A stretch of 64,000 bases of DNA from Candidatus Krumholzibacteriota bacterium (GTDB taxonomy: Bacteria > Krumholzibacteriota > Krumholzibacteriia > Krumholzibacteriales > WJIX01), in assembly GCA_034520215.1 (NCBI GenBank), contig JAXHNR010000001.1, positions 1,230,560-1,294,559 of the forward strand, written 5' to 3'. The notes under the pieces were generated by a model. It worked only from the letters and a program-made list of their open reading frames with translations. It was not told where the DNA came from and did not search any database. Position numbers and translations under genes: made by a program. Positions 6,535-58,188 of this stretch are shown one piece after another. Every line of letters starts with the position of its first letter. Within the stretch, counting starts at the first letter, position 1.

Positions 6535-6748
6535 TCGTCATCCTCTCTGGCGGTACATTTTGTCCAGAAGATAAAAAAAGATATCAGCTTGAGCATTTAA
6601 CGCTTCAAGTTTAAAAAAATATAGCGTTAAATTGCTCCTCAATCAAGAAGAAGATAAATTCGTCGGGATAAATCCTGCCCTTTAAATCAAAAAAACATGA
6701 TCAGAGAAATAAACCCACCTGCTGTAATCATTCACTTGTTTCATAGCA
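6535..6748. other. non-coding spacer with a 47-base imperfect inverted repeat
   Basis: No gene is supported here. Bases 6591-6604 (GAGCATTTAACGCT) and 6623-6637 are inverted copies with one bulged base, separated by an 18-base A/T-rich loop. The hairpin lies just upstream of the rfaE1 start, so it could sit in the 5' leader of that transcript or be an unrelated remnant. It lacks a T-run, which argues against an ordinary terminator. Confidence 0.5.
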
Positions 6749-7033
6749 GGACTTTCCCCAATTTTTAACATTCCTTTGTATATCCGGCTATTGGTATTGT
6801 CAAAAACGCCGTCTATTTCCCCTGCGAGGAAATAGCGTCTCCCGCTCTCAGACTCGCTCTTTCCCATTTCCCTAAAGGAAATGGGAAAACCATGCCCGCT
6901 CGTCTTCCGAGAGGGTTTTTTAGGTACCAATAGCCGGATAGAAACTAAATATCAATTCCACTTATCATTCTGGGTAATTACTTGATAGTTATGCCATTAC
7001 TAAAATATTGCCCTGATTTTTGGGGAATGTCCT
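6749..7033 (+). mobile_element. structured MITE-like element, copy A1
   Basis: A 285-base non-coding element. Its ends are inverted copies: GGACTTTCCCCAA at the left and TTGGGGAATGTCC at the right. The flanks TGTTTCATAGCA (6737-6748) and GGTCTCATAGCA (7034-7045) agree at 10 of 12 bases and look like a decayed target duplication. Inside lies a long outer stem (TATCCGGCTATTGGTA near 6781 with its inverse ending near 6939). It encloses three short hairpins: CTATTTCC/GGAAATAG, CCCATTTCC/GGAAATGGG and CCCGCTCG/CGAGAGGG. A near-identical inverted copy lies at 54115-54403. No transposase is encoded. The reading frames crossing it are side effects of the stems. Confidence 0.75.
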
Positions 7034-7190
7034 GGTCTCATAGCAATTGACTAATCAAACTGTATTGTTTAACCTTAACTTAAGAAAGTGAATAATTTAA
7101 TGTTAGCCGATATGCGATTATTTGCCCGTCTTCCGCGCGAGTATTGGCAAACAGCAGAATCAGGTTAATTTTTTCAATGAAAGGATAATC

Positions 7191-7514
7191 ATGAAGAAGA
7201 AACAACATCAAATCCCCGTACAGCTCGATGAAAAAGAAGCTGAAGGAGTATATTCCAATTTTGTCCTTACCTCTTTTACCCCGGCTGAATTTGTTATAGA
7301 TTTCGCCAGAATGCTTCCGGGATTAAAAAAAGCTAAAGTTCATTCCAGAATAGTAATGACTCCTCAATCCGCGAAATCACTTGTAGGATTACTCAGCCAA
7401 ACAGTGAGAAATTACGAGAGTAAATTCGGCGAGATCGAGGTTAAAGGAAAAAAAGGAAATCAAACAATTGGATTTCACGCAAATTCAAACCTTGGTTCAG
7501 ACAAGAAGAACTGA
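7191..7514 (+). CDS. DUF3467 family protein
   Basis: A 107-residue protein of the DUF3467 family, small widely distributed proteins of unknown function. The recognisable core runs through YSNFVLTSFTPAEFVIDFAR and RIVMTPQSAKSLVGLLSQ, followed by a basic, Gly-rich tail. The start is the ATG at 7191, because AAAGGA precedes it and MKKKQHQIPVQLDE begins the conserved region; an upstream in-frame start would add 23 residues without family support. It is one of only two plus-strand genes in the first 49 kb and sits alone between element A1 and the convergent acyltransferase. Confidence 0.8.
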   Translation: MKKKQHQIPVQLDEKEAEGVYSNFVLTSFTPAEFVIDFARMLPGLKKAKVHSRIVMTPQSAKSLVGLLSQTVRNYESKFGEIEVKGKKGNQTIGFHANSNLGSDKKN

Positions 7515-7534
7515 AAAAAATACATCAACAGCAT

Positions 7535-7567
7535 GCGCCCGGACAAATTATACCCTGTTATTTTCGG
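7535..7567. terminator. possible terminator between convergent genes
   Basis: GCGCCCGG near 7535 can pair with TCGGGCGG near 7562, and the plus-strand side is followed by TTTTGTTTT. The loop is long (about 20 bases) and the right arm lies inside the 3' end of the acyltransferase gene. It would serve the plus-strand DUF3467 transcript. Confidence 0.35.
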
Positions 7568-8471
7568 GCGGTTTTGTTTTCCACCTCTTATGGGCCCAGA
7601 AATATTGATCCGGATATTTTATGACGGTCTCTTCCAACGCCTTGACGTGAAGAGCGGTTAATCTCTTTATTTCTTCTTCCCTGTCCGCTTCCGGATTCAT
7701 CTGAATTTGAGGGCAAAATACCGCGTGATGAGTTTCATCTTTCCTTCTTACAATAAAAGAAAAGATTATAGGACAGTTCACGCGACACGCGAATTGCGCG
7801 GCGCCCGGATATGTAGAAGAAGGTATCCCGAAGAAATCCACAAAAATGCCGGCTTTCCTGGCGTCCTGGTCGGAAAGCATCGCGACGACTCTGTTCTTCT
7901 TCAGCGAAGCAAAGATGCCTCGTATTGAAACACCAACGGGTATGGTCCCTATTCCAGCTTTTCTTCTAAGCCGGTTAATGTAGGAATCGACAAATTTGTT
8001 CCCCTGCTGTCCAACGAGAAAATCTGTCGGGATTCCAGTAGCGGCAAACGCCGCTCCCATAAGCTCCCAACTTCCTAAATGACCTGTAATCGCTATAACC
8101 CCATTACCCTTTTTGAGCGCTTCTTCCATATATTCCTTACCGGAGAAGGATACAAGCTCCCGCAGGTCATCAGCAGACAACCTCCCAACAGAAGCGAACT
8201 CGATCATAGATTTCGCGAAGTTAATGTAGGATCTTCTGCCGGTTCTCAGCCGCTCCCGGCTGCTCATTCTGTCTCCGAAAGCTTTCTTTAGATTATTCAG
8301 TGTAACAGATCTTCTTATTCTGAAAATATCGAATGCCAGTATGCCGAGTATTCCGCCAAACTTTACTGAAACCTTAAGGGGCAGAAGCGAAGGCAGAATG
8401 GAAAGAATATACACTCCCATCAGCTCTAAGCGGTGGCGTATTCTCTTCCAGTTATCTATATTTCCCCCCAT
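7548..8471 (-). CDS. lysophospholipid/lipid A acyltransferase, LpxL/HtrB family
   Basis: This family attaches secondary acyl chains to lipid A (or acts in related phospholipid acylation) at the inner face of the inner membrane. The 307-residue protein has an N-terminal hydrophobic segment (around residues 18-35) and the catalytic HLGSWELMG (HX4E) near residue 127. Next come FLVGQQGNKFVDSYINRLR and a SDQDARKAGIFVDFFGIP region typical of LpxL/LpxM. The ATG at 8471 overlaps the stop of the DUF362 gene, suggesting coupling. Which acyl position it modifies cannot be read from sequence. Confidence 0.88.
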   Translation of the reverse strand: MGGNIDNWKRIRHRLELMGVYILSILPSLLPLKVSVKFGGILGILAFDIFRIRRSVTLNNLKKAFGDRMSSRERLRTGRRSYINFAKSMIEFASVGRLSADDLRELVSFSGKEYMEEALKKGNGVIAITGHLGSWELMGAAFAATGIPTDFLVGQQGNKFVDSYINRLRRKAGIGTIPVGVSIRGIFASLKKNRVVAMLSDQDARKAGIFVDFFGIPSSTYPGAAQFACRVNCPIIFSFIVRRKDETHHAVFCPQIQMNPEADREEEIKRLTALHVKALEETVIKYPDQYFWAHKRWKTKPPENNRV

Positions 8472-9658
8472 CAAGTTACAAGTTTTGCCAGACGACTCAT
8501 CTTGATTTCAATGGCGTCTTCCGGACACAACTCATGACAGCACATACAAGTAATACATTTATTATTATTTATTCCGCACACTCCGTCCTGATAGGATATA
8601 GCCTCAACGGGACAGCTTCTCTGGCAAAGACGACATCCGGTACATACCGATGGATCAACTATAAGTTTTAACCACACAAAGGGTGATATCATACGGGCCA
8701 AAGGCCTGGGAATCATCCTGAGTTTTCTGTTTGACGGCAAATCAAAAGATACGGGTCTTACCTCTTTGCCGTCACCGGTTACCTGTATACTCTCAATATC
8801 ACCAACCCCCAGTTTAATCTCATCCGCCATCCTCGTTGTATCTATCGAGCCGGGTTTAAAACCAATTATTCGCGCGGCTACGGCGTCAATAGCCACCGCG
8901 TCTTCACCGGCTATAACCAGCCCCAGCTTCTTTGGATTCCCTGAACTTGGACCGTCACCCTCCATCGCCACAACCGCATCGACGATACTGAGAGAGGGTC
9001 TTACCTTACTGTATAGCTCAACCAGCATCCTCGCGAATTCTCTCGGTTTCGGAAACTCCTTGTGCAACTCTGACTTTCTAAAACCACAGACAGTGCCGAA
9101 CATATTCTTTAAAGCGCATGTTAAGAGTGTGAGTGTATGTGTCTTCAACTTAGCGATATTTATTATCACATCGGCATCTATAACAGGTTTCGCTATATAA
9201 AAAAGATAATCTCCGCTTTTTACCTCCACTGACCCTGAAGCTTCAAAATTTACGAGTTCTACTCCGATTCTGCGGGCCATCTCCTCAATACCGGTGTTTT
9301 CCCATACTCTCTTTACTCCGCGCAACACCCCTCCCGGACTGTCGCCTATAACCGGATACCCGCCGCAATCTGTTACGATCTTTGCCACAGCTTCTATTAC
9401 GGACGGATGCGTAGTTATCGCTCTTTCAGGTCTCTTCGCGGAGAGCATATTCGGTTTGAGAAGCACCCTTTGTCCCGGCTTAACAAAGTGCTCAATGCCG
9501 CCGACATGCTCGATACTCCTGCTTACAGAATCATAAACATCAGCAATTCCGTAACCGGAACACTTTGTAATAGAAACAATACTGTTTTTAGTATTCCGTG
9601 TACTCAAACTTGAATCCTCTGCTAAAATCCCCTTTCCGGAAAATAAAATATTATCCAA
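8471..9658 (-). CDS. DUF362 domain protein with C-terminal 2[4Fe-4S] ferredoxin
   Basis: A protein of up to 395 residues. The DUF362 domain (about residues 25-290) contains LLKPNMLSAKRPERAITTHP, DSPGG and INIAKLKTHTLTLLTCALKN. The C-terminus carries two iron-sulfur motifs: CTGCRLCQRSCP followed by CITCMCCHELCP. DUF362 proteins are abundant in anaerobes and are thought to be redox proteins; no substrate is established. The TTG at 9658 gives the longest form; a TTG at 9607 behind GAGG would give a form 17 residues shorter that starts nearer the conserved region. It overlaps the acyltransferase start. Confidence 0.85.
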   Translation of the reverse strand: MDNILFSGKGILAEDSSLSTRNTKNSIVSITKCSGYGIADVYDSVSRSIEHVGGIEHFVKPGQRVLLKPNMLSAKRPERAITTHPSVIEAVAKIVTDCGGYPVIGDSPGGVLRGVKRVWENTGIEEMARRIGVELVNFEASGSVEVKSGDYLFYIAKPVIDADVIINIAKLKTHTLTLLTCALKNMFGTVCGFRKSELHKEFPKPREFARMLVELYSKVRPSLSIVDAVVAMEGDGPSSGNPKKLGLVIAGEDAVAIDAVAARIIGFKPGSIDTTRMADEIKLGVGDIESIQVTGDGKEVRPVSFDLPSNRKLRMIPRPLARMISPFVWLKLIVDPSVCTGCRLCQRSCPVEAISYQDGVCGINNNKCITCMCCHELCPEDAIEIKMSRLAKLVT

Positions 9659-9770
9659 CTCAAAGCAACCGGCAATTACATGCGAATCACTTATTTGAGA
9701 GAAGCGCGCTAAACCAGCTTGATCTCTATTCTAAGCGGGACTTTCCCCCAAATATTCAGCAATGAATCCA

Positions 9771-10877
9771 CTAAATAGATCGAATCTCTTTCGCCGCGTA
9801 CAGCCCGGCTCCAAAAGACCTGCATAGCCCCTTCATCTCCAACCTCAAAAGGAGAGGCAGAAGCGACACTATTTTAATATTACTTTCCAGCGCGAGTTCA
9901 TCGACATGCCTGGGTTCTAATTCAAGGATGTCAAGCACCCTTCTTTCATTACTTGTCAATGAAACATTTTCATCCTCTGATCTATTTCCTTCTCCCCTTA
10001 AATCGAACAGGGGCATAAGTACCCCCAGTATATCCTCGGCACTTTCAACTAGCACCGCTCCCTCTTTTATTAGTTTGTGCGGCCCTCTGCTGCCTCTGCA
10101 TTCGACCGGACCCGGTACGGCTAAAACCTCCCTCCCCTGCTCAGCCGCCCAGCCGGCAGTGAGCATCGCTCCACTTTTGATTCCGGCCTCTACGACTACT
10201 ACCCCTTTTGAAATACCGCTTAGAATCCTGTTTCTCCGGGGAAAATTATATTTCAACGGCGGTGTTCCCACGGGAAATTCAGTGATAACACATCCATTCC
10301 GTGATATATCTATCGCCAGCGAAGAATTTTCCCTCGGGTATGCTATATCGATTCCGCATCCAAGAACGGCAACAGTGCCACCTTCTCTTTCAAGGGCCCC
10401 TTCATGAGCGGAAGTATCGATACCCCTGGCCAGCCCACTGACAACAACCACACCAGAGGCGGATATACTCCTTGCCAGACTTTTTGCCGTCAACCTTCCT
10501 CTTCTGCTGCAGCTTCTGGAACCTACAATACAAACCTTTCTCTTTCCAAGGCTTTTGATATTTCCTTTACAGAAGAGTAGCGGCGGAGGATATTTAAGTT
10601 CTTTTAAAAGAGCGGGATATTCACCGTCTGATATTGCTATAATCCGGCACATTCCGCTTTTGTCTGCTGAAAGCTGCTCTTCAATAAATTCTCTATTAAT
10701 ACCGCTGATTCTTTTCCCGATAAGAGCGCCCAGTTCTCTTCTTCCGGTTCGCTTCCGAAGCATCCCTGACATTTCCTCCAGTGAAATCCTATCTCTTAAT
10801 CTTATCCATGTGGGAACAGTTACCCCTTCGACAGAAAGAAGATTTAGCCATAATCTTGCTCCCCTTGAACACATCAT
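9771..10877 (-). CDS. dprA: DNA processing protein DprA
   Basis: DprA binds incoming single-stranded DNA during natural transformation and loads RecA. The 368-residue protein has a helical N-terminal region and the Rossmann-like core with IVGSRSCSRRG near residue 130 and SGLARGIDTSAHEGAL near residue 160. GGTVAVLGCGIDIAYPREN follows, and a C-terminal winged-helix DprA domain ends the protein. The ATG at 10877 follows GGAGG by five bases; an in-frame GTG two codons earlier overlaps that site. With the type IV pilus genes at 20-37 kb, it makes natural competence plausible (inference). Confidence 0.95.
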   Translation of the reverse strand: MMCSRGARLWLNLLSVEGVTVPTWIRLRDRISLEEMSGMLRKRTGRRELGALIGKRISGINREFIEEQLSADKSGMCRIIAISDGEYPALLKELKYPPPLLFCKGNIKSLGKRKVCIVGSRSCSRRGRLTAKSLARSISASGVVVVSGLARGIDTSAHEGALEREGGTVAVLGCGIDIAYPRENSSLAIDISRNGCVITEFPVGTPPLKYNFPRRNRILSGISKGVVVVEAGIKSGAMLTAGWAAEQGREVLAVPGPVECRGSRGPHKLIKEGAVLVESAEDILGVLMPLFDLRGEGNRSEDENVSLTSNERRVLDILELEPRHVDELALESNIKIVSLLPLLLRLEMKGLCRSFGAGLYAAKEIRSI

Positions 10878-10970
10878 CCACACCTCCGCTTTCTCAAACG
10901 ACTAAACATTTTAGCTTTGAATCATTAATAACCGGCGGGTAAAATCATATCCCTGCCCGAACCACACTAC

Positions 10971-10996
10971 AAGGTGCTGCCGGAAGGCAGCACTTA
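10971..10996 (-). terminator. stem-loop downstream of the MscS-type gene
   Basis: GTGCTGCC (10974-10981) and GGCAGCAC (10986-10993) form a perfect 8-bp stem closed by a four-base loop. It lies 45 bases past the stop of the mechanosensitive channel gene on the minus strand and ahead of dprA. Only a short T-run follows, so termination may be weak. Confidence 0.5.
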
Positions 10997-11040
10997 TATC
11001 CATTTTAACCTATAATTCTTTTATCCATCAAGGGGTTTTG

Positions 11041-11976
11041 TCATTTGTCCTGGGAGGGTGGTTTTCCAGGCTTTCGGTCAAAATGCTCACTGTAAATCCT
11101 CTGAGTAGGATAGGCAAAATTAATATCTTCATTTTCGTCAAAACGGTTAAGAATATCTTCCCAGATCTCCTGCTCAGTTCCCCTTCTCGCGCGCGGATCG
11201 CACATGTAACGCATTGAAAGCATAACCCCGCTGTCCTTAACAGATGTGTATACGGTAGGTGTTAATTTCTCGTAATGAATAAGAAACTTCCCCTTCATTC
11301 TGTTAAGCTGGCTGCGGGCTGTATTAGCTAAATGTTCCGCGTGGTTTAAGGCTACTTCTAAGAGGATCTTCTTTGCCTTTTTCCAGTCACTCTCAAAGGT
11401 AATAAGAACGGGGATTTCATTCCAGATATACTCGAGCCCCGCACTGTAATTCGCGAGCGCGTCAGTAAAAATCTTGCCGTTGGGTACGTGTATAATTCTC
11501 CCGGTGGACTGATCCGCGTCAACCCAATTCCCCACCTCTATAAGAGAAAACTGAAATACTCTTATATCAACAACATCCCCCGTCGATCCCGCGATCTGAA
11601 TTCGATCTCCGGGTTCGAAAGGATGGCGCCATATAATAAATACCCAGGCGGCGAAATTAACTATCGGATCTTTAAGCGCCAAAACAAGACCGGCGGATAT
11701 AATACCAATGTATGTCAATACCGTCTGCAACCCCTGTATCCAGATCCTGCCTACGAGCAGTACGGCGATAAAAACCGAAATATACGCGGACATCTTCCGC
11801 CATTGATACCGTCCCCTTATTTCTTTCACCCGCTTAACTGCGATTCTCAGCGTAATACTACGAATAATCCAAATTGAGAATATAAGCGCAATTGATGAAA
11901 AGATTTTGAACTGTATAGCCTTGCTAATCCCTAAATTATCACTAATCCATGAAATATAAATATCCACAAAATCCAT
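11041..11976 (-). CDS. MscS-family mechanosensitive ion channel
   Basis: A 311-residue small-conductance mechanosensitive channel homologue, an inner-membrane protein that releases solutes on hypo-osmotic shock. Three hydrophobic segments are visible (about residues 22-42, 62-82 and 88-108). The pore-lining helix is followed by the MscS beta domain (WVFIIWRHPFEPGDRIQI, then GDVVDIRVFQFSLIEV) and GRIIHVPNGKIF. The pore helix is less Gly/Ala-rich than in E. coli MscS (LALKDPIVNFAAWVFI), so this is a divergent member. Start ATG at 11976 behind GAGTGAGG. Confidence 0.87.
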   Translation of the reverse strand: MDFVDIYISWISDNLGISKAIQFKIFSSIALIFSIWIIRSITLRIAVKRVKEIRGRYQWRKMSAYISVFIAVLLVGRIWIQGLQTVLTYIGIISAGLVLALKDPIVNFAAWVFIIWRHPFEPGDRIQIAGSTGDVVDIRVFQFSLIEVGNWVDADQSTGRIIHVPNGKIFTDALANYSAGLEYIWNEIPVLITFESDWKKAKKILLEVALNHAEHLANTARSQLNRMKGKFLIHYEKLTPTVYTSVKDSGVMLSMRYMCDPRARRGTEQEIWEDILNRFDENEDINFAYPTQRIYSEHFDRKPGKPPSQDK

Positions 11977-12013
11977 AAGTTTGGCCTCACTCTTCCTAAA
12001 TCACAAAAAAAGT

Positions 12014-13537
12014 TTAACCGAGGCTTCCAACTTCTTTCTCGACCTCTTCAAGTATCTCGCAGGATCGCACGAGCTCTTTCATCTTTGTATGGTCAGGATA
12101 AAGAGGCCTGTCCACATCCAAGAAATCAATGTACTTTCTTATTACTTCTTTTGCCTTGGTTACTCCCTTTCCGAACTTAAACTCACGGAAATCGAGCGCC
12201 TGGGCCGCCGCCATAAATTCAATTCCCAAAATGCCGTACGCGTTATCCAGTATCTGGAAATTCTTAATCGCCGTATTCATGCCCATAGATACAAAGTCCT
12301 CCTGATCGGCTGCCGCGGGTATCGATTGAATCGACGCGGGGCTTGAAAGTATCCTCTGTTCAACTATCTGCGTATCGGCCGTGTACTGGCTGAGCATCAG
12401 CCCGGAAAACATACCGGCACCCTCCGTTAGAAATGCCGGAAGCCCCACACTCAAGGCAGGATGGTTAAGTCTGTTCATCCGTCTTTCCGACATGACGCTC
12501 ACCATAGTAACAGCGACACCTACCATGTCCATGGGAAGGGAAACGGGTGATCCCTGAAAATTAGCGCCGGATATCTGTAAATCCTCATCGGGGAAAAAAA
12601 CCGGATTGTCTCCTACTCCGTTAAGCTCCACTTCAACCTGCTTAACAGCGAATTCAATCGCGTCATGCGCCGCGCCAATAACCTGAGGAGCCGAACGCAT
12701 CGAATAAGCGTCCTGAACCTTACATTTTATCTTTTCATTGGCAAGATCTCCGCCTTCGACAAGTTTTCTGATCGACTCGGCACTCCTTACGGCTCCCGCA
12801 AACCCTCTGGCCTCATGAAGCTTCCGGCTGTAGGGCTTCATGTTTGCCTTAAGAGCCTCTAAAGACATTGAAGCAGCTATCTCAGCCTGCTTTAGCCAAT
12901 TCTTGGTGTCATGCAGCATAATAGCGCTCATAGCGGTCAATACATTGGAACCGTTTATTGTCGCGAGTCCGTCTCTGGCCTTCAATCCCGGAATTTCGAT
13001 CCCCGCTCTGTCCATGGCATCTTTCCCATCGAGAAGTTCACCTTTGTAATAGGCCTGCCCCTCGCCAAGCAGAAGAAGAGCAATCTGAGACATAGGCGCC
13101 AGGTCGCCGCACGCGCCTACAGAACCTTTTTGACATATAAATGGTGTTACACTCTTATTCAACATTTCAACCAGCGTCTGCGTTATTACCGGCCTGCATC
13201 CGGAATTGCCATTGGCGTGAACATTTATTCTGCTTGCCATCGCTCCTCTCACATACTCAAGTGGAGCAGGATCGCCGATTCCCGCAGCGTGGTTATAGAT
13301 AAGATACTTCTGAAACTCCTTTACCTGTTCGTCATCTAAAACAACCTCTGAAAATTCGCCAATCCCGGTATTAACACCATACATGATTTCTTTGGCTTCT
13401 ATCTTTCTTTCAAGCATAGCACGGCATTTCTTGATCCTCTCAAGAGCTTCATCTGAGAGTTCTACCTTTTCACCATGACGGGCTATCTTAACTATTTTTT
13501 CAATCGTCAAGTCGTTGCCGCTGAGTGTAATCGCCAA
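12014..13537 (-). CDS. hutH: histidine ammonia-lyase (aromatic amino acid lyase family) with Ala-Cys-Gly MIO triad
   Basis: HutH deaminates L-histidine to urocanate, using an electrophilic MIO group formed autocatalytically from an Ala-Ser-Gly triad. The 507-residue length is normal. YGVNTGIGEFSE (near residue 53), RINVHANGNSGCRP and QEDFVSMG are typical. Residues 142-144 read Ala-Cys-Gly (GSVGACGDLAPM) instead of Ala-Ser-Gly, and codon 143 is TGC at 13109-13111. The start is TTG at 13537 after GGGGAGG. The substrate is inferred to be histidine because hutU and hutI are also in the window; another aromatic amino acid remains possible. Confidence 0.88.
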   Translation of the reverse strand: MAITLSGNDLTIEKIVKIARHGEKVELSDEALERIKKCRAMLERKIEAKEIMYGVNTGIGEFSEVVLDDEQVKEFQKYLIYNHAAGIGDPAPLEYVRGAMASRINVHANGNSGCRPVITQTLVEMLNKSVTPFICQKGSVGACGDLAPMSQIALLLLGEGQAYYKGELLDGKDAMDRAGIEIPGLKARDGLATINGSNVLTAMSAIMLHDTKNWLKQAEIAASMSLEALKANMKPYSRKLHEARGFAGAVRSAESIRKLVEGGDLANEKIKCKVQDAYSMRSAPQVIGAAHDAIEFAVKQVEVELNGVGDNPVFFPDEDLQISGANFQGSPVSLPMDMVGVAVTMVSVMSERRMNRLNHPALSVGLPAFLTEGAGMFSGLMLSQYTADTQIVEQRILSSPASIQSIPAAADQEDFVSMGMNTAIKNFQILDNAYGILGIEFMAAAQALDFREFKFGKGVTKAKEVIRKYIDFLDVDRPLYPDHTKMKELVRSCEILEEVEKEVGSLG

Positions 13538-13994
13538 ATTAACCTCCCCGTTGACCTGTAGTATTTACAGGTTTTCCCGTTCTATCATTAATAAAACGCT
13601 GACAAATCTCACAACGTCAGCATATTTCTACCAAATTGAACGCGTTTTTTTCCGCGCAACCGTCAATATACTTTATATATTTATCTGAATCAAAACCGAT
13701 TGTCCATAAAAAAGATAAAACCGTCGTCACTGAATAAGTTTGTTCTTCTTAAAAAAGAAATTCACTTCAAAATGAGACCTTAATATTTATCGATTGTGTC
13801 CTCCCCTACAATTCAGAAGTTTACCCGGCATTTTATATTTATCAACGCAAATGTAACTAATGGCTGTTACCAAGTTCATATCCTCTTTTTCATATCTTAT
13901 CACTATAACATTGATAAAATTACAACTTTGTGTATAATAAATAGTATCGGGAACTTCTTTTTTTACTGGTCTGATTCTAATTCGGGGGTGCAAG
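13538..13994. other. divergent spacer between hutH and the serpin gene
   Basis: No gene is supported. On the hutH side there are two short perfect inverted repeats: ACCTGT/ACAGGT around 13553-13571 and GCTGAC/GTCAGC around 13594-13617. They would lie in or near the hutH leader and could be operators or leader stems. The serpin-side promoter is listed separately. The rest is A/T-rich. Confidence 0.5.
13911..13938 (+). promoter_or_regulatory. sigma-70-type promoter for the serpin gene
   Basis: TTGATA (13911-13916) and TATAAT (13933-13938) are separated by 16 bases, with a purine-rich start region near 13945. This leaves a leader of about 50 bases before the serpin ATG at 13995. Both hexamers are close to consensus. 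Confidence 0.6.
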
Positions 13995-15227
13995 ATGTCA
14001 CTTTCAAATGTAATTCCTATTCATTTTCTGCTTATCATCGCGTACTCGCTAATGCCTCAGACACCTACGGGGGAGAACACTGAAAAGATGATAAATAAAA
14101 ATATTGTTAATGCTTATACTGAATTCGGGTTTGATCTATATAAAAAGGAAATAAATACTCATAAGGACGAGAATATATTCATATCACCAGTTAGTGTCTC
14201 TCTGGCCCTAGCGATGACAACCGGCGGGAGTGACGGAGAAACAGAGAAAGCGATACTGAAAGCTCTTAACCTCGAAGGTATAAAGCGCGAAACATTCAAG
14301 AGCGCCAATAAAAACCTTATTTCGAATTTACTCAAAGAAGATAAAGATGTAGAGCTTTCGATCGCGAACTCCATCTGGCTTAAGAAATCAATCCGTTTTT
14401 ATGAAAATTTCAAAACCGACACTGAGAATTACTTTTTCGCCGACCTCTTCGCTCTATCTACCGCCGAACCCATAAACGAATGGGTAGAAAAGAAAACAAA
14501 TGGAAGAATAAAGGATATCATTGAAAGCGTCTCCCCCGCCGATATCGCGTATCTTGTAAACGCGATATATTTCAAGGGCAGCTGGGCAGAGGAATTCGAC
14601 AAGAAACTAACGAAACCCAAAAGCTTCTACCTTAAAGGCGGAGAAGAAATAAAAGTAGATATGATGAAGCGGCAAGACAGATTCAAATATCTTAAAACAG
14701 AAGATTTCGAGGCGGTAACTATTCCGTATGGAGACGGAAAAACGAGTGTTTCTCTCTTTCTGCCAAATAGAAATTCATGCCTTGATACCTTACATGAAAA
14801 TATCTCCCTCGAATCCTGGAAACGCTGGAGATCTGATTTCAGAAGGCGGGAAGGTACCGTTGAATTACCAAAGCTAAGGATAGAATACAAGTCAAAACTC
14901 AACAACTCACTCTCAGCCCTGGGAATGGGAATAGCTTTCTCTCCGTCTGACGCGGATTTTTCAAGAATGTGTAGAGTCGACGGCAAACTAAATGTATATA
15001 TAAGCAAAGTGCTTCATAAAACATTTTTAAAGGTGGACGAAAAGGGAACCGAAGCCGCCGCGGCAACGGCAATAGGAGTAACTCTGACTTCAACGGCTCA
15101 TAAACAGATCGAACCTTTTCATATTGTATTTAACAGACCGTACTTTCTGGTTATAACGGACAACAGCAGGGGCCTGCCTCTGTTTATAGGGTCGGTCCAG
15201 GAACCGCCTAAGTCAAATTCCGATTAA
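13995..15227 (+). CDS. serpin-family protease inhibitor
   Basis: Serpins inhibit serine (sometimes cysteine) proteases by a suicide conformational trap. The 410-residue protein contains the whole fold: FISPVSVSLALAMTTGG near the start, YLVNAIYFKGSWAEEF in the middle and a C-terminal HIVFNRPYFLVI. The reactive-loop hinge GTEAAAAT begins at residue 351 and has the small residues needed for loop insertion, so it is probably inhibitory. Counting from the hinge puts P1-P1' at about Thr365-Ser366. The N-terminus is hydrophobic but has no basic residues, so export is uncertain; an internal ATG at 14088 would give a cytosolic form. GGGGGTG precedes the start at 13995. The 3' end overlaps obg by 20 bases, convergently. 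Confidence 0.93.
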   Translation: MSLSNVIPIHFLLIIAYSLMPQTPTGENTEKMINKNIVNAYTEFGFDLYKKEINTHKDENIFISPVSVSLALAMTTGGSDGETEKAILKALNLEGIKRETFKSANKNLISNLLKEDKDVELSIANSIWLKKSIRFYENFKTDTENYFFADLFALSTAEPINEWVEKKTNGRIKDIIESVSPADIAYLVNAIYFKGSWAEEFDKKLTKPKSFYLKGGEEIKVDMMKRQDRFKYLKTEDFEAVTIPYGDGKTSVSLFLPNRNSCLDTLHENISLESWKRWRSDFRRREGTVELPKLRIEYKSKLNNSLSALGMGIAFSPSDADFSRMCRVDGKLNVYISKVLHKTFLKVDEKGTEAAAATAIGVTLTSTAHKQIEPFHIVFNRPYFLVITDNSRGLPLFIGSVQEPPKSNSD

Positions 15228-16200: not shown

Positions 16201-16201
16201 T

Positions 16202-17587: not shown

Positions 17588-17754
17588 CTAAAACTCCAAA
17601 TCTTACCCTTATCCATGTTGCCGAATCAAACCGAAGATTTATGCGACTCATTCTTCTATGACCGGTTAATCATATAAAATATTTAATCGAAATAATATTA
17701 CTTGTCACATTTTATGACATACTTAAAAACAAAGGCACAAAACTCTCAGTATTA

Positions 17755-28566: not shown

Positions 28567-28600
28567 GAATCCTCCGAAACGCGGCAATACGAAGTTCTTG

Positions 28601-28911
28601 TGGAGTTTCCCCAATTTTTATAACCTATAAGGTAGTCGATGATTTGTAATAGTATGCGGATGGTTGATATTTTCAAAATCGTTGTCGATTTCTCGCCGGC
28701 CGAGGAAACCGCTGGCTCTCCCGCCTCGGGCTCGCTCTTTCTGCCCCTTCGGGTCAGAAATCCTTGCCCGCTCACCACTCGGCGAGGGTTTTGAAAATGT
28801 CAACCATCCGCACTCATCAGCAATGAAAACCCTATTCCACTTACCAATCCTGATAACTTATTGTATCTCGCAATGTTAGTAAAATACTTGCCGGATTCTT
28901 GAAATCTATTA
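28601..28911 (+). mobile_element. structured MITE-like element, copy B1
   Basis: A 311-base non-coding copy starting TGGAGTTTCCCCAATTTTTA. The outer stem pairs GCGGATGGTTGA (28655-28666) with TCAACCATCCGC, and continues as TTTTCAAAA/TTTTGAAAA. Inside are CGATTTC/GGAAACCG, a TTTCTG/CAGAAA hairpin with a TTC turn, and CTCG/CGAG. It shares CTCGCTCTTTC and TGCCCGCTC blocks with family A. The flanks (28589-28600 and 28912-28923) agree at only 8 of 12 bases, so this copy looks older. Reading frames through it on both strands are not credible genes. Confidence 0.7.
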
Positions 28912-47805: not shown

Positions 47806-47890
47806 AAATTCTGTATACTATCCCTCCGGCAACCCAAAACCCGTTGCATTTATTATCAAAAGAATTTTTACGAGATTAAGATCCCGATAA

Positions 47891-47909
47891 AGCCGGATAA
47901 TACCCGGCT
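47891..47909 (-). terminator. probable terminator after thiC
   Basis: AGCCGG (47891-47896) and CCGGCT (47904-47909) form a 6-bp stem with a seven-base loop, followed by TTTAT on the minus strand. It starts about 40 bases after the thiC stop. The T-run is short. Confidence 0.5.
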
Positions 47910-47950
47910 CACTTACTCAAATAATATTCACAAAACCATTCTGAGATAAA

Positions 47951-49252: not shown

Positions 49253-49281
49253 TATATTCTCCTCCTTACAAAAACAACTTA

Positions 49282-49310
49282 AGTATAAACTTCACATAAT
49301 TCTTAGTCAA
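49282..49310 (-). promoter_or_regulatory. sigma-70-type promoter of thiC
   Basis: On the minus strand TTGACT (49305-49310) and TATACT (49282-49287) are exactly 17 bases apart. Transcription would start about 25 bases before the thiC TTG, leaving no room for a TPP riboswitch; no thi-box is seen in the spacer. Confidence 0.65.
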
Positions 49311-49434
49311 GAATGTGGTTGCATTATCGTGATTTATTATAACGTTCTAAATGCTACTTGCGGTAAAGCTGTTTCTTTAATATTATCAATGTAAAGTTAA
49401 TTAATTGAAGTAAAGTAAGTTAAATGGAGATTGA

Positions 49435-50172: not shown

Positions 50173-50529
50173 TGAATATAACAGAAACATAACGCTGTAT
50201 TAAGATTACATTGTAGTATTTATCAACAGATTAATTATATAATGGTACAAGCATTTTTAATGATAAAGACCGAAGAACTTAAAAACAATCCTCAATGCTG
50301 GCCTAAGTATTGTTAAATGGGATTTTATACAATACACACCCATTGCAGAGCTCTATATAAACCAATGGAAAAGGATACGGAAAGAATGTTTGAAAAGTCA
50401 ATATCCATGAGAAATAAAACCCCGGCATATCCAATCGCGATATATCTCTTTGTCTTGTTTATTACATCGCCGATAATATTCCGCCAGTCGGAACTTCTTA
50501 GAATATCGTAATTGGAAAGACAAACAATT
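50173..50529. other. A/T-rich spacer between the glucosaminidase and MATE genes
   Basis: I see no supported gene. A 64-codon plus-strand frame (50317-50511) has a Cys/His-containing N-terminus and a hydrophobic C-terminus, but no clear ribosome site or family resemblance, so I do not call it. No strong terminator follows the glucosaminidase gene. Confidence 0.45.
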
Positions 50530-51939
50530 ATGAGAACAGAAAAAGAGAATCATATTCCCACCGGGCCAAGAACAACTAAAGGGGTCGAAACTCTTCTCGG
50601 TGATCCAAAAAAGGCTATTCTTAAACTTTCTACACCGATGATTCTGGGTATGTTTTCTCAAGCCGTATACAATATCGCGGACGGGATCTGGGTTTCCGGA
50701 CTCGGAGCTGATGAACTTGCCGCTGTAGGCCTCTTCTTTCCGTTTTTTATGGTTATTATCTCACTCGGCGCAGGGATAGGCATCGGGGGAGGTTCGGCCG
50801 CTTCACGCCGTATAGGAAAGGGTGATAAGGCAGGAGCTGATAACACGGCTATTCACACATTTCTTGTCGGAGGAAGTATATCTTTAATAATTAGTATATC
50901 GATTCTACCCTTTATCGATACTATTTTCAGTTATTTCAGCGGAAACGGGAATGTCGGCGCAATGGCCGCGGGATACGCGAAGATTCTTTTCAGCGGCACA
51001 GTAATCATGGTATTCAGCCATATAGCAGGCGCGCTTTTACGTAGCGAGGGTGACGCGAGAAGAGCCATGTACGGCCTCATGGTTGGTTCTATCTTAAATA
51101 TCGTTCTAGATCCTATTTTTATCTACTGGCTTGATATGGGGGTGATAGGCGCCGCGTGGGCTACGATTATTTCACTGACTTTTTCATCTCTTCTTTTCTG
51201 CTACTGGCTTTTCTTCAAGAAAGACACATATCTTATCATCACCCTCAGGGATTTTAATTTTAACAGGAAAATACTGGCGGAAATACTTAAAGTGGGGGTT
51301 CCTTCCTCTCTGGCGCAGCTCTCTATGTCATTTGCTATGATAATTTTAAACAAAGTTGTAATCAGAGCCGGAGGAACAGACGGCATTGCTGTATTTACGA
51401 GCGGCTGGCGCATAGTGATGCTGGGAGTAATTCCCCTCATCGGTATTTCTACGGGTGTGGTATCCGTTACAGGGGCGGCCTATGGAGCAGGTAACCGTGA
51501 AAAGCTCAAGTCTGCTTTTTACTTTGCCGTAAAATTCGGTTTATTGATAGAAGTTTCTATAGGGGTACTGATTTTGATTTTCGCGAGACCCGTAGCGCAC
51601 ATCTTTACCTATTCTGAAGGTTCAGAACGAATCCTGGAAGATTTGGTAACCTTTCTGCGTATTATATGCCTGCTTTATCCTGCTGTACCGATGGGTATGC
51701 TCACTTCAGCTATGTTCCGAGGGATAGGACACGGAGGCAGATCTCTTATTGTCACAATTATCAGGACTATTATTCTTCAGGTGCCCGCCGCTTATTTTCT
51801 GGGTATTATTCTAAATATGGGCTTAACCGGCGTTTGGCTTGGAATGGTCGGAGGAAATATTCTCTCTTTAATCGTCACCTTCTCCTGGGGAATATTTACT
51901 GTCAATAAAGTTCCTCTTCCCCGTTCTAAACAGAACTGA
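50530..51939 (+). CDS. MATE-family efflux transporter
   Basis: A 469-residue inner-membrane antiporter of the MATE family, which exports cationic drugs or metabolites using Na+ or H+. Twelve hydrophobic segments are visible. Typical MATE segments occur in each half: LSTPMILGMFSQAVYNIADGI with GAGIGIGGGSAASRRIG, then VPSSLAQLSMSFAMIILNKV with GISTGVVSVTGAAYGAGNREK. The ATG at 50530 is preceded by GGAAAG; an upstream TTG at 50512 would add six residues. Confidence 0.92.
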   Translation: MRTEKENHIPTGPRTTKGVETLLGDPKKAILKLSTPMILGMFSQAVYNIADGIWVSGLGADELAAVGLFFPFFMVIISLGAGIGIGGGSAASRRIGKGDKAGADNTAIHTFLVGGSISLIISISILPFIDTIFSYFSGNGNVGAMAAGYAKILFSGTVIMVFSHIAGALLRSEGDARRAMYGLMVGSILNIVLDPIFIYWLDMGVIGAAWATIISLTFSSLLFCYWLFFKKDTYLIITLRDFNFNRKILAEILKVGVPSSLAQLSMSFAMIILNKVVIRAGGTDGIAVFTSGWRIVMLGVIPLIGISTGVVSVTGAAYGAGNREKLKSAFYFAVKFGLLIEVSIGVLILIFARPVAHIFTYSEGSERILEDLVTFLRIICLLYPAVPMGMLTSAMFRGIGHGGRSLIVTIIRTIILQVPAAYFLGIILNMGLTGVWLGMVGGNILSLIVTFSWGIFTVNKVPLPRSKQN

Positions 51940-52117
51940 TATTTAATGAACCTCATTAATCTCCGCCAATTCATTGTGGATTTTGTTTGACTAAAACACA
52001 CCAAAGTATATAGACTGAAATCACACTCGCTTTAAAAGTTAATCTGAGTTTTGAGCCAGGCTGTTTTTTATATTCTGGTTCAATGTTTAAATATATTAAC
52101 GAAAGGAAATATTTTTC

Positions 52118-54073
<1,956 letters not shown>

Positions 54074-54114
54074 TAACAGAATACAAATGAGGTTAGCCAA
54101 GCAGGCTCATTCCC

Positions 54115-54403
54115 GGGACATTCCTCTGAAAATCAAGAGCAATATTTTAGTAACTACATAACTATCAAGTAATTATTCATAATGATAAGTTGAATTGATA
54201 TTTGGTTTCTATCCGGCTATTGGTATTTCAAAACCCTCTCGGAAGACGAGCGGGCATGGTTTTCCCATTTCCTTTAAGGGAAATGGGAAAGAGCGAGTCT
54301 GAGAGCGGGAGACGCTATTTCCTCGCAGGGGAAATAGACGGCGTTTTTGATAATACCAATAGCCGGATATACAAAGGAATGTTAAAAATTAGGAAAACTC
54401 CAA
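54115..54403 (-). mobile_element. structured MITE-like element, copy A2
   Basis: A 289-base copy of the family, inverted with respect to A1 and nearly identical to it through the core. Read on the minus strand it begins TTGGAGTTTTCCTAATTTTT and ends with GAGGAATGTCCC. It is flanked by exact 12-bp direct repeats AGGCTCATTCCC at 54103-54114 and 54404-54415, as expected for a recent insertion. The outer stem is ATCCGGCTATTGGTAT with its inverse; the three inner hairpins are those of A1. It occupies most of the gap between the ligase and the acyl-CoA dehydrogenase. Confidence 0.85.
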
Positions 54404-54478
54404 AGGCTCATTCCCTCTTGAAGCGGATTTGAAAATAATCTGATAATTGTAAATTAACTGCCCTGAAAGCAGCGAAGA

Positions 54479-55636
54479 TTAAATGTCGTAACATCCTATC
54501 TTCCGGGAAATAACAAGACGTTGAATCTCGGACGTTCCCTCTCCTATAGTTAGAAGTTTGTAGTCCCTGTAAAACCTCTCTATATCGTACTCTTTCATCA
54601 AACCATAACCGCCAAATATCTGAACCGCATTGTCTACCACTCTTCCCATCACTTCCGAACAATACAGTTTTGACATCGCGGCTTGTTTATTAAACGGTTT
54701 TCCGGCGTCCTTCAATTTACAGGTTTTGTAGAGTAAACTCCTTGCGGCTTCTATCTCCATTGCCATATCGGCCAGTTTAAAAGAATTTGCTTCGAATGTT
54801 GAAATGGGTCTGCCGAACTGCTCACGATTCTTGGCGTATTTTAGCGCCAGCTCAAAAGCCCCTTGCGCTCCTCCCAATCCCATAGCAGCAATTGCTATTC
54901 TTCCATTGTCAAGAGTTTCAAGCATCTGGTGGAAACCCTCTCCCTTCTTTCCAAGGAGATTTTCCTCTGGTACCCTGCAGTCATCGAAAAAAAGCTCCCC
55001 GGTGTTCGAAGCTCTCCACATCATCTTTCCCGTCATCTTTTTTGCTATAAACCCGTCAGTTCCATTTGGAACAAGTATACAGGACATCTCTTTCTTACCG
55101 TCGGGACGCTCGCCGGTAACAGCCTGAACGACACATACTCCGGACATATCGGTTGCAGAGTTAGTAATAAATATCTTGCTTCCATTTAGAACCCACATTC
55201 CATCATATAATTCTGCGGTAGTGTTGCTTGCTCCGGCATCCGAACCGGCATCAGGTTCTGTAAGACCGAAGGAGGCAAGCATCTCGCCGCCGCAAAGACG
55301 CGGAAGCCACTCTTGCTTCTGTTTTTCACTTCCGTAATAATATATAGGACCTACACCAAGAGAATTTCCCGCGGCTACTGTCGCCGATTGTGAAGCGTCA
55401 ATTCTCGCGAGTTCTTCAACAACAATACAGTAAGATAGATACCCCATCTCCGAACCGCCGTATTTCTCTGGTATTATTATACCGAAAAGCCCCATTTCAG
55501 CCATCTGCTTTGTCAATTCAGCGGAAAACTCTTCGTTTTCGTCAAGCTCCTGAGCTCTCGGCGCGATTTCGTTCTCAGCGAAACTCCTTACACTATCTCT
55601 TAATACTCTCTGTTCTTCTGATAGGCCGTAATTGAT
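54479..55636 (-). CDS. acyl-CoA dehydrogenase, apparent ATC start
   Basis: A flavoprotein that introduces a 2,3-double bond into acyl-CoA and passes electrons to ETF. Family motifs are SFGLTEPDAGSDAGA, ITNSATDMSGVCVV, REQFGRPISTFEANSFKLADM and the C-terminal QIFGGYGLMKEYDIERFYRD followed by EGTSEIQR. The in-frame homologous N-terminus (NYGLSEEQRVLRDSVRSFAE) extends 40 codons upstream of the first TTG, to an ATC at 55634-55636 that follows GGAGG by six bases. An in-frame TAA lies just upstream, and no ATG, GTG or TTG intervenes. The full protein would be 385 residues, normal for the family. Confidence 0.9.
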   Translation of the reverse strand: MNYGLSEEQRVLRDSVRSFAENEIAPRAQELDENEEFSAELTKQMAEMGLFGIIIPEKYGGSEMGYLSYCIVVEELARIDASQSATVAAGNSLGVGPIYYYGSEKQKQEWLPRLCGGEMLASFGLTEPDAGSDAGASNTTAELYDGMWVLNGSKIFITNSATDMSGVCVVQAVTGERPDGKKEMSCILVPNGTDGFIAKKMTGKMMWRASNTGELFFDDCRVPEENLLGKKGEGFHQMLETLDNGRIAIAAMGLGGAQGAFELALKYAKNREQFGRPISTFEANSFKLADMAMEIEAARSLLYKTCKLKDAGKPFNKQAAMSKLYCSEVMGRVVDNAVQIFGGYGLMKEYDIERFYRDYKLLTIGEGTSEIQRLVISRKIGCYDI

Positions 55637-55674
55637 TTCTTTCCTCCTGTTAATTCCTCTGAATTACATTCTTT

Positions 55675-56265
55675 CTAGAAACTGAAACCCTCGGGTAATT
55701 CTCCTTTTTTCGTTCCATCCGGAACCCAGGAAAGGTCAAGGATCGTACTGGTCGGATACTTCGTGCGGAATATCGGTATAACTTTCATTCCTATCTCCGG
55801 TTCTCCAAGCGATAGATAGCTCATAAGAATCGTGTCAACATCATCAAATTCTATATTCACGAACTTAATAGGCTTATCTAGAATATTGAAAGCCCCCGCT
55901 CTCTCACATACCATAAATGTATGTACTTTCGCTGTCTCTTTGGCCTGTTCAGTCATATCAAAGACCGTATTCTTACCGAGACAATCGGGACAGTGTATCC
56001 TGAACGGCTGATAAACAGTACCCTTGAACTGGCAATCAGGATTATCACAACGCGTTGCAAGCAATTTACCTTCGCCTAATGCTTCAAAAAAAGGCGCTTC
56101 ACTTCCGTAGCTGTGAATATATGTCATATCGCGGGGATTGGTAACTCCCATTAATTTCCAACCCTCATCCGCGTTGCGGATAGGGATATTGGGAGTCAAA
56201 TTATGAAAATCACCTTTTAATTTGTATTTGCCATCCTTTACAAACACCTGTCCAAACATGCTCAT
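55675..56265 (-). CDS. DUF35 zinc-ribbon/OB-fold protein (thiolase partner)
   Basis: A 196-residue protein of the DUF35 type, small proteins that bind acyl-CoA through an OB fold and form complexes with thiolase-like partners. It has a rubredoxin-like zinc ribbon (CDNPDC and CPDC, about residues 74-100) and an OB-fold region ending EIGMKVIPIFRTKYP. It lies 20 bases after the thiolase-like gene. The N-terminal ~65 residues are longer than in minimal DUF35 proteins. ATG at 56265 behind GGAGAG. Confidence 0.87.
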   Translation of the reverse strand: MSMFGQVFVKDGKYKLKGDFHNLTPNIPIRNADEGWKLMGVTNPRDMTYIHSYGSEAPFFEALGEGKLLATRCDNPDCQFKGTVYQPFRIHCPDCLGKNTVFDMTEQAKETAKVHTFMVCERAGAFNILDKPIKFVNIEFDDVDTILMSYLSLGEPEIGMKVIPIFRTKYPTSTILDLSWVPDGTKKGELPEGFSF

Positions 56266-56285
56266 TTTACTCTCCTTTACGCGTC

Positions 56286-57713
56286 TTACTTCAATAAATG
56301 ATCAGGGTCCATTAAGATCGTAGCTGTTACTTGCGAACCAACGCCGGCATGGCTGATAGCCATTCCCCGCTTTGCTCCCTTTACTTGAAGGTCTGTCCAA
56401 TCGGACGGTTTTTCCCTGCCGAATTCCTTCCACCTCTTTTGGTCGCCATGAATCTCCGCCCATCTATCCCATATATGGGTGGCTACTTCAAAGGCCTGCA
56501 TGATACCTGTGGCGCCCACGGCGTGCATACACCCTATCAAGCCTCCCGAAAGATTGGATGGAAGCTTGCCGGGTTTCCCGGTTTTTGGATTAGTGTGATA
56601 GCAATCCCCCGACTCAACGTAATCTCTTCCCTCTCCATAGGGACGAATTCCAATATCTTCGTATGTCTGTACATCGCTGATAGTAAAAGCGTCGTGCAAT
56701 TCCAGAAGATCCAGATCTTCTCTCGGATCAGTAATTCCAGCCATACGGTAACCGTACCAGGTAGCCATTCTGGCGGCCAGAAATCCAGTAAATCCCGGAT
56801 ATCTATCCCCGCCGGGAAATCTTTCACCCAGGTTCTTATACTGATCAGCCGATTCATGCGGAAGCAGCGGTATATCCATATCTCGCCTGTCCGCGGGTCT
56901 TAAAGTATGAGAACCGGCTCCGACCCATATCCTCACGGCCTTATGTGATGAATTTTCAGTAAGTATTTCGGCGGTTTTTTCATCACAGATAACAACACAC
57001 GCCGCCCCAACACTCATAAGGCAGCAGTCAAGAGCCCTTAGCGGATAAGCGATAACAGGTGAATTAAGAACATCTTCAACTGTAATCTTTTTAGGTGAAT
57101 GCGCGAATGGATTCATTCTAGCGTACCCGTGATGTTTTACAGAGATCTCTGCCAGTGTTTCCCTGAAAGATTTCTCCGCCTTACCGAATATCTGCCAGTA
57201 CCTCTGTGCCATTACCGCGTAATAACCCGTATAGATATGTCCAAGGGGTGATTCCCAGTCTTTATCGGCGGCGCAGGAGATTAGGAAATTCCCCTCATCA
57301 GTCGGAACCTCATCCATCCTTTCCCAACCCATTGCCAGAGAACAGTCGGAATAACCGGAAGCCACGGCTTTTACTGCTTCCCATATCGTTGAACCTCCGG
57401 TAGCGCCTCCGGTTTTGACACCAATATTTCCAAGCGGGTCAAGACCGAGCCTGTCATGAATAACCGCTTCACCAAGAAGCTGATCACCGAAATGATCGGC
57501 GAAATGACCATAATAAGCAGTGTGTATAAAACTCTTAAGTTCAGCCGCTGACATATTCAAGAGATCCGCGGCCATTGTCAGGGCATCAACACATAGCTCT
57601 TCTGTTCGCTTCTCTGGTATGGCTCGATCGAACTTTGACTGACCGCCCGTTACCATATAAACCGGCCTCATAAGCTCCGGCACCTTTAATTGCTGTTTAC
57701 TGAATTTGATCAT
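56286..57713 (-). CDS. thiolase-superfamily protein (SCP2-type) lacking the canonical Cys
   Basis: A 475-residue thiolase-fold enzyme, longer than usual thiolases (about 390). It would act on an acyl-CoA with its DUF35 partner. The segment where thiolases carry the nucleophilic Cys (CASG) reads VKTGGATGGST near residues 99-109, with no Cys. The C-terminal second Cys region reads SHAGVGSQ. HDAF (near 345) and HAVGATG (near 400) retain the other active-site elements. It may therefore be a retro-aldolase like the Ltp2/ChsH2 type, or a non-classical thiolase. ATG at 57713 behind GGGGAGGAG. Confidence 0.82.
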   Translation of the reverse strand: MIKFSKQQLKVPELMRPVYMVTGGQSKFDRAIPEKRTEELCVDALTMAADLLNMSAAELKSFIHTAYYGHFADHFGDQLLGEAVIHDRLGLDPLGNIGVKTGGATGGSTIWEAVKAVASGYSDCSLAMGWERMDEVPTDEGNFLISCAADKDWESPLGHIYTGYYAVMAQRYWQIFGKAEKSFRETLAEISVKHHGYARMNPFAHSPKKITVEDVLNSPVIAYPLRALDCCLMSVGAACVVICDEKTAEILTENSSHKAVRIWVGAGSHTLRPADRRDMDIPLLPHESADQYKNLGERFPGGDRYPGFTGFLAARMATWYGYRMAGITDPREDLDLLELHDAFTISDVQTYEDIGIRPYGEGRDYVESGDCYHTNPKTGKPGKLPSNLSGGLIGCMHAVGATGIMQAFEVATHIWDRWAEIHGDQKRWKEFGREKPSDWTDLQVKGAKRGMAISHAGVGSQVTATILMDPDHLLK

Positions 57714-57867
57714 ACTCTTAACTCCTCCCCTAACAAAAAAATTAAAAAGGTAGCTCGCTGAACTAATCTGGATTTTTTACGCATATCCCTTAAAAGCTGC
57801 TCAAGTTTGAACCGTGTTTTGTGATATTATCAGATACTTCAAAACGTGTCTATAGATAATACAGTGA

Positions 57868-58176
57868 TTGGAGTTTCCCCAATTTTTATAACCTATAAGT
57901 TAGTCGATGATTTGTAACAGTATGCGGCTGATTGATATTTTCAAAATCGTTGTCGGTTTCCCCGGCGAGGAAACCGCTGGCTCTGCGCCTCGGGCTCGCT
58001 CTTTCTGCCCCTTCGGGCCAGAAATCCTTGCCCGCTCGCCCTCCGGAGGGTTTTGAAAATATCAAACAGCCGCACTCATCAGCAATGAAAGCCCTATTCC
58101 ACTTACCAATCCTGATAACTGATTGTATCTCGAAAAGTTATTACAATACTTGCCGGATTTTCAGAGGGAACTACAC
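57868..58176 (+). mobile_element. structured MITE-like element, copy B2
   Basis: A 309-base non-coding copy starting TTGGAGTTTCCCCAATTTTTA and ending GGGAACTACAC. Exact 12-bp direct repeats ATAATACAGTGA flank it at 57856-57867 and 58177-58188. The outer stem pairs GCGGCTGATTGATATTTTC with its near-perfect inverse ending at about 58072. Inside are GGTTTCC/GGAAACC, TTTCTG/CAGAAA and CCCTCC/GGAGGG hairpins. Most stem differences from B1 are matched on the opposite arm. It lies upstream of the thiolase-like gene. Confidence 0.85.
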
Positions 58177-58188
58177 ATAATACAGTGA

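What the first reader, a model, noticed from the sequence alone, without database searches (positions are those of the whole stretch)
6737..58188. Four-copy family of a 285-311 bp non-coding element with 12-bp flanking direct repeats
Copies at 6749-7033, 28601-28911, 54115-54403 (inverted) and 57868-58176 share the terminal sequence (T)TGGAGTTTYCC-AATTTTTA or a close variant, blocks CTCGCTCTTTC and TGCCCGCTC, and a similar hairpin layout. Seen directly: exact 12-bp direct repeats flank the third copy (AGGCTCATTCCC) and the fourth (ATAATACAGTGA); the first has 10/12 matching flanks and the second 8/12. Inference: a non-autonomous mobile element (MITE-like) with 12-bp target duplications, an unusual length, and copies of different age. 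I do not recognise it as a named family.
Basis: partly seen in the sequence, partly recalled or inferred. Interest (0 to 1): 0.82.

Follow-up and report, generated by a model that had tools for sequence, protein, structure and literature searches.

The report
Small transposons parked beside gene promoters
This bacterium carries many small, gene-less jumping DNA elements that tend to sit a fixed short distance in front of a gene's start signal, as if the jumping enzyme finds its landing sites by the promoter, which would be unusual for a bacterial element and is worth testing.

Summary
The four copies are real. They fall into two subfamilies of one MITE-like element with 97 clusters of pieces in a 2.6-Mb genome. 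Their ends match intact IS4-like insertion sequences in relatives; in this genome only transposase fossils were found. Flanking duplications are supported (46 of 69 full copies against a mean of 1.05 for re-paired flanks) but run 8-14 bp, mostly 9-11, not a fixed 12.

Main new result: a TTGACA-like hexamer points away from one element end, 13-17 bp out, followed by a -10-like hexamer at a 17-bp spacer. Promoter score of at least 9/12: 43 of 69 copies against 0-5 of 69 in eight control windows. Partial copies, another genus and 5 of 11 IS copies show the same. Four leftover end remnants all lie on the side away from the promoter.

Second result: the hairpin core, bounded by inverted arms, is flipped in 23 of 69 copies.

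Best explanation: an IS4-like transposon/MITE that integrates just upstream of sigma70 promoters. Whether the enzyme reads the -35 hexamer or the polymerase complex is open. No experiment supports it yet.

The parts
6749..7032 (+). Copy 1, subfamily II, core in direct orientation
6738..6748 (.). Left flanking repeat of copy 1 (10 of 11 matches)
7035..7045 (.). Right flanking repeat of copy 1
7047..7052 (+). TTGACT, -35-like, 14 bp outside the right end of copy 1; with TAACCT at spacer 17 it scores only 8 of 12
6781..6940 (+). Core of copy 1 between inverted arms
28602..28911 (+).
28582..28587 (-). TTGCCG, -35-like, 14 bp outside the left end of copy 2, with a -10-like hexamer 18 bp further on
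28655..28812 (+). Core of copy 2 between inverted arms
54115..54403 (-). Copy 3, subfamily II, core direct relative to its ends; lies between convergent genes
54103..54114 (.). Flanking repeat AGGCTCATTCCC of copy 3
54404..54415 (.). Flanking repeat AGGCTCATTCCC of copy 3
57868..58176 (+). Copy 4, subfamily I
57856..57867 (.). Flanking repeat ATAATACAGTGA of copy 4
58177..58188 (.). Flanking repeat ATAATACAGTGA of copy 4
57824..57852 (-). Promoter-like TAGACA-N17-TAATAT beside copy 4, pointing away from it toward the gene at 56286-57713; its -35 block is kept in three congeners
57923..58074 (+). Core of copy 4 between 24-bp inverted arms

Best explanation
These are MITEs moved in trans by an IS4-like DDE transposase. 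The enzyme joins the element to the target at two points about one helical turn apart, immediately upstream of the -35 hexamer of a sigma70 promoter. The element then ends near -49, the 8-14 bp duplication fills the gap, and the core promoter stays intact. Shown by sequence: ends, duplications, fixed distance to TTGACA-N17-TATAAT-like sequence, and the same pattern in another genus and in several IS relatives. Inferred: that an IS4-like transposase is the mover, that the pattern is target choice and not later selection, and that the promoters are active. The inverted cores most likely arose by recombination between the internal inverted arms.
For: TSDs in 46 of 69. TTGAC outward at 13-19 bp: 33 sites on 138 flanks, none inward. 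Exact TTGACA at offset 11-19 in 24 of 69, against 0 of 69 in each of six control windows; at least 5 of 6 in 44 of 69 against 2-8. TATAAT with 5 of 6 or better at spacer 17 in 12 of 50 sides, 0-4 at other spacers. Combined score 9/12 or better in 43 of 69 against 0-5 in eight control windows and about 3.2 in shuffles. Sides with TTG but not TTGAC: TANNNT at spacer 17 in 16 of 32, 0-6 at other spacers. Partial copies: 13 of 24 with TTGAC, 16 of 24 with score 9 or better. Four TIR remnants, all on the far side. IS relatives with the same ends, TSDs of 11 and 8 bp in G213 and G295, exact TTGACA in 5 of 11 IS copies.
Against: 26 of 69 copies score below 9 of 12 and 12 have neither TTGAC nor TTG at 13-17 bp. 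Window copy 3 reaches the score but lies between convergent genes. The motif was noticed and counted on the same 69 copies; the partial-copy, G004 and IS sets had no control of their own. G003 and G010 IS copies show no duplication, and G118 shows no -35. In G295 the insertion is inside a gene. In at least 4 of the 69 one end was set automatically at a place that is not a true TIR. No promoter has been mapped.
Confidence: 0.72

Rival explanations
1. The transposase reads only a TTGAC(A)-like DNA sequence next to the duplication. Promoters are hit because that is where intergenic TTGACA occurs and where insertions survive.
For: Exact TTGACA in 24 of 69. In G295 the IS lies in a coding frame, 13 bp from TTGACA that has no -10 (7 of 12).
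Against: Sides with TTG but not TTGAC still have TANNNT at spacer 17 in 16 of 32. The other end of the G295 copy has TTGAAA-N17-TATACC (9 of 12), so that case is not clean.
Confidence: 0.38
2. Insertion is loosely intergenic and selection keeps elements that spare or improve the promoter, for instance as an insulator upstream of it.
For: The core folds strongly and partial copies keep the promoter-proximal end (that set was chosen by its left end).
Against: Selection would have to act within a few bases: of 45 outward TTGAC on 138 flanks of 120 bp, 33 lie at 13-19. A consensus scan gave one weak terminator-like site in copy 4, shuffles mean 0.4.
Confidence: 0.15
3. The repeats are a family of structured RNA genes or regulatory repeats and not a mobile element.
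For: Fold z-scores of -4.4, -5.5 and -7.8; 16 of 39 consensus pairs with compensatory types in 63 distinct cores.
Against: Flanking duplications, IS-matching ends, sites without the element in relatives. No Rfam family at gathering threshold. Palindromic arms can co-evolve as DNA.
Confidence: 0.03

Closest known systems
IS4 family of insertion sequences (PMC2266710: sections 6 and 7 and passages seen)
   Same: DDE spacing, YREK motif, single ORF, duplications of about one helical turn in the partner IS and the MITEs. That paper says some IS4-subgroup elements and ISRm22 have marked specificity in the target arms.
   Different: Partner transposases score below the curated NCBIfam IS4 and IS701 cut-offs and the ends fit no listed subgroup cleanly. 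A fixed step upstream of the -35 is not stated in what I saw; the figure with target-arm sequences is not held.
MITEs derived from IS elements, such as MIC231 of the IS231 group (named in PMC2266710; details recalled)
   Same: Short, gene-less, IS-like ends, direct repeats.
   Different: Promoter-anchored sites, a core bounded by its own inverted arms, and many inverted cores.
Ty1/Ty3 retrotransposons of yeast (recalled, no call)
   Same: Integration at a set distance from a promoter.
   Different: Retroelements at Pol III promoters, by contact with transcription proteins; here a DNA element at sigma70 promoters and no contact is shown.
IS inversions by TIR-TIR recombination in Wolbachia (PMC3004938, abstract seen)
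   Same: Inversion of element sequence between inverted repeats.
   Different: Here the repeats are internal arms and only the core flips.

Membership tests
MITE | Short and without a transposase gene | tested here: met
   No ORF of 100 aa or more overlaps the four window copies; full copies are about 242-322 bp
MITE | Terminal inverted repeats shared with an autonomous element | tested here: met
   GGACATTCCCCA in G003 and G010 IS; TGGAGTTTCCCCA in G213 and G295 IS and in the own fossil at C2:23070
MITE | Target-site duplication | tested here: met
   46 of 69 against a mean of 1.05
IS4 family (partner IS) | D(60-110)D(100-150)E | tested here: met
   86/123 in G003, G010, G213 and 90/126 in G118; in G295 my pattern did not find the first D (4 of 5)
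IS4 family (partner IS) | Y(2)R(3)E(6)K motif | tested here: met
   5 of 5 proteins
IS4 family (partner IS) | Duplication of about one helical turn | tested here: inconclusive
   IS copies: 11 bp in G213, 8 bp in G295, none seen in G003 and G010; MITE copies 8-14 bp
IS4 family (partner IS) | Curated NCBIfam IS4 score cut-off | tested here: not met
   39.1 and 44.1 bits against 160 for NF033590; Pfam DDE_Tnp_1 cut-off is met by G003 and G010, not by G118
IS4 family (partner IS) | Terminal bases of a named subgroup | tested here: inconclusive
   TT, GT or CA before GGAG or GGAC; no clean fit to Table 1 of PMC2266710

The most novel reading that the evidence does not exclude
A bacterial transposon family whose transposase is steered by the sigma70 RNA polymerase at promoters and integrates at a fixed step upstream of the -35: a bacterial counterpart of Ty1/Ty3 targeting.
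Probability: 0.33. Interest if true: 0.9.

Novelty: new variant of a known kind. Interest (0 to 1): 0.73.

Why it matters
A fixed step upstream of housekeeping promoters would be a safe-harbour strategy for a DNA transposon: genes and core promoters stay intact. It would give a simple bacterial system to ask how integration is tied to transcription, and could mark promoters in uncultured genomes. It would also help explain how MITEs came to fill roughly 0.8% of this genome (my estimate from 69 copies of about 300 bp) although no intact transposase of this kind was found in it.

Tried and rejected
Rfam: nothing at gathering threshold in the window. A weak match to Atu_C7 (23.3 bits against 45; E 0.0012 on 309 bases of copy 4; E 0.09 in 1 of 7 further loci) aligns around a long hidden stretch, and I do not take it as a relationship.

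Viral contigs: no close transposase and no core-pattern match. Plasmids: no element match, transposase relatives only at 25-27% identity. Phages: one transposase relative at 27%; the element itself was not searched there. Phyla of G213 and G295: only 8 and 5 genomes were held. Solved structures: only weak hits to unrelated proteins (E 0.04 and above).

Core inversion as one event: disfavoured but not excluded by much. Trees of 26 of 28 subfamily-II copies (one hybrid and one shortened copy left out) need at least 4 (ends) and 5 (cores) changes, 2 of them forced by well-supported branches; shuffled labels need 5.5.

Literature: ten searches were answered. I read their listings, passages and sections 6 and 7 of PMC2266710 and the abstract of PMC3004938. 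I saw no IS or MITE described with a fixed step to the -35. Only open-licence PMC papers are held, and Figure 3 of PMC2266710 is not, so a precedent cannot be excluded.

Dropped before counts: G333, G263, G112, G356 and the short G001 hit were left out of the IS-end table because I could not delimit their ends. Four of 97 clusters (core-only or right-end-only) and one partial element that shares a cluster with a full copy were not in the target test. First looks scored only 40 of 125 and 40 of 101 candidates and the TIR pattern list was cut (158 hits, 35 with the backward control pattern), so copies may be missing. Two extra TIR loci with TTGACA (L179, L180) and one without (L181) are not counted among the 69 or 24.
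Full report
Observation. The four copies lie at the stated places. Copies 1 and 3 form subfamily II (left end 34, core 160, right end 95 bp), copies 2 and 4 subfamily I (55, 152, 102 bp). Identity is 92% within each pair; between pairs only parts of the core (about 75-78%) and the left terminus match. The window belongs to a 2,600,818-bp genome in two contigs. By one helicase protein the best-matching named records are two Latescibacterota MAGs at 67%; that is a lead, not a classification.

Copies. DNA and pattern searches and 47 fetched stretches gave 97 clusters. I used 69 as full-length and 24 partial ones with a left end (one of these is the IS fossil at C2:23070). In at least four of the 69 (C1:361492, C1:386378, C1:433542 and window copy 2) one end was set automatically at a place that is not a true TIR. 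Flanking repeats pass my criterion in 46 of 69, against a mean of 1.05 and a maximum of 4 in 60 random re-pairings. They mostly begin about 2 bp outside GGAG or GTCC and run 8-14 bp (9-11 in 31 of 46).

Target. TTGAC pointing away from the element occurs 33 times at 13-19 bp from an end (21 at left ends, 12 at right ends), 12 times elsewhere within 120 bp, and never inward at 13-19. Exact TTGACA at offset 11-19: 24 of 69 copies, 0 of 69 in each of six control windows; at least 5 of 6: 44 of 69 against 2-8. On the 50 sides with at least 5 of 6, the other clear block is TATAAT-like at spacer 17 (12 sides with 5 of 6 or better; 0-4 at other spacers). A combined score of 9/12 or better is reached in 43 of 69, against 0-5 of 69 in eight control windows and about 3.2 in shuffles; 29 of 46 copies with repeats and 14 of 23 without. 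On the promoter side an ORF of 80 aa or more starts within 30-300 bp in 35 of 43; on the other side in 21 of 43. Sides with TTG but not TTGAC still have TANNNT at spacer 17 in 16 of 32, with 0-6 at other spacers, which points to promoters and not a hexamer alone. Partial copies: 13 of 24 with TTGAC, 16 of 24 with score 9 or better, without a control of their own.

Results against. 26 of 69 score lower. 12 copies have neither TTGAC nor TTG at 13-17 bp; a few of these have TTTACA, TAGACA or TTGACA at 19. Window copy 1 has TTGACT but scores 8. Window copy 3 reaches the score yet lies between convergent genes, so the score alone does not prove a promoter. The motif was noticed and counted on the same 69 copies.

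Stacking. In four copies a lone TIR remnant lies just beyond one duplication (offset 13-14). In all four it is on the side away from the better promoter-like side (scores 8, 11, 10, 10), with no such remnant at offset 60-95. Repeated insertion at one distance from the same promoter would leave this.

The mover. The only PF01609 match in this genome is weak and broken; protein searches found fossils at C2:23070, C2:921674 and C2:36414-38831. The C2:23070 fossil has the subfamily-I TIR and lies 17 bp from TTGACA-N17-TATATT. Intact relatives: G003, same genus (TIR 16 of 16), and G010, same order (15 of 16); more distant ones in G213 (52% identity), G333 (48%), G118 (47%) and G295 (45%). They carry the DDE and YREK features but score below the curated IS4 cut-offs. 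Of 11 IS copies with a delimited end, exact TTGACA at 13-17 bp is seen in 5 (G003, G010, G213, G295, C2:23k fossil), partial matches in G016 (TGGACA), G394 (TTGCCA), G177 (TTGCCC), C2:36k (TTGAAG) and C2:921k (CTGAAA), none in G118. Duplications: 11 bp in G213, 8 bp in G295, none evident in G003 and G010. In G295 the IS interrupts a reading frame and its TTGACA has no -10, which speaks for hexamer reading there; its other end has TTGAAA-N17-TATACC, so the case is not clean.

Other genomes. G004, another genus, has copies at about 79-80% identity. Of five loci read by eye, two show duplications and three have TTGACT or TTGACA 14-16 bp out; one has neither. G001-G003 gave no copy, but they are fragmented. 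At copy 4, G002 and G003 have the gene-to-gene gap without the element, and in G001 the contig ends inside the gap; all three keep TGTCTATA, the complement of the -35, so the promoter-like sequence predates the insertion. The right flank and the 12-mer are too diverged to show a single-copy target. At copy 3, G001, G003 and G004 lack the element; G002 is not testable.

Core inversion. The core sits at the same positions in both orientations: subfamily I 39 direct and 2 inverted, subfamily II 7 direct and 21 inverted. Trees need at least 4 and 5 orientation changes. One hybrid joins a subfamily-II left end and inverted core to a reversed subfamily-I left end (C1:581453). Recombination between the arms is the simplest cause; inversions of whole IS by TIR recombination are reported in Wolbachia (PMC3004938, abstract). 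The core folds strongly (z -4.4, -5.5, -7.8) and 16 of 39 consensus pairs show compensatory types among 63 distinct cores; palindromic DNA can do this without an RNA function.

Conclusion. MITE: yes. Partner: IS4-like, subgroup unassigned. Site choice just upstream of sigma70 promoters: well supported by sequence, untested by experiment. Hexamer or polymerase: open.

Noticed in passing
G000 C1:581453-581696 (L038): Hybrid element: subfamily-II left end and inverted core joined to a reversed subfamily-I left end.
   Followed up: partly
G000 C1:85601 and C1:90750: Two subfamily-II copies 5 kb apart share a core with a subfamily-I type inner hairpin, in opposite core orientation.
   Followed up: partly
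G000 C1:108599, C1:194069, C1:386378, C2:264651, C2:272150, C2:824538, C2:670928: A third right end (CCTTAAATAACGTTGATGG-like) follows the subfamily-I left end and core; several end in a GGACATTCC-type TIR.
   Followed up: partly
G000 C1:1553111, C1:1561709 and C2:45479 (L179-L181): Another repeat with TIR GGAGTTTCCCCATTTTTCT; two of the three lie 13-16 bp from TTGACA.
   Followed up: partly
L218 (G333), near 1330-1355: Two back-to-back TIR-like ends 9 bp apart upstream of the transposase, perhaps a tandem insertion.
   Followed up: no
G000 partial copies, e.g. C1:593984, C1:775841, C2:490550: Many copies keep only the promoter-proximal end and are cut off on the far side, as decay limited by the promoter would leave; the set was found by its left end.
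   Followed up: partly
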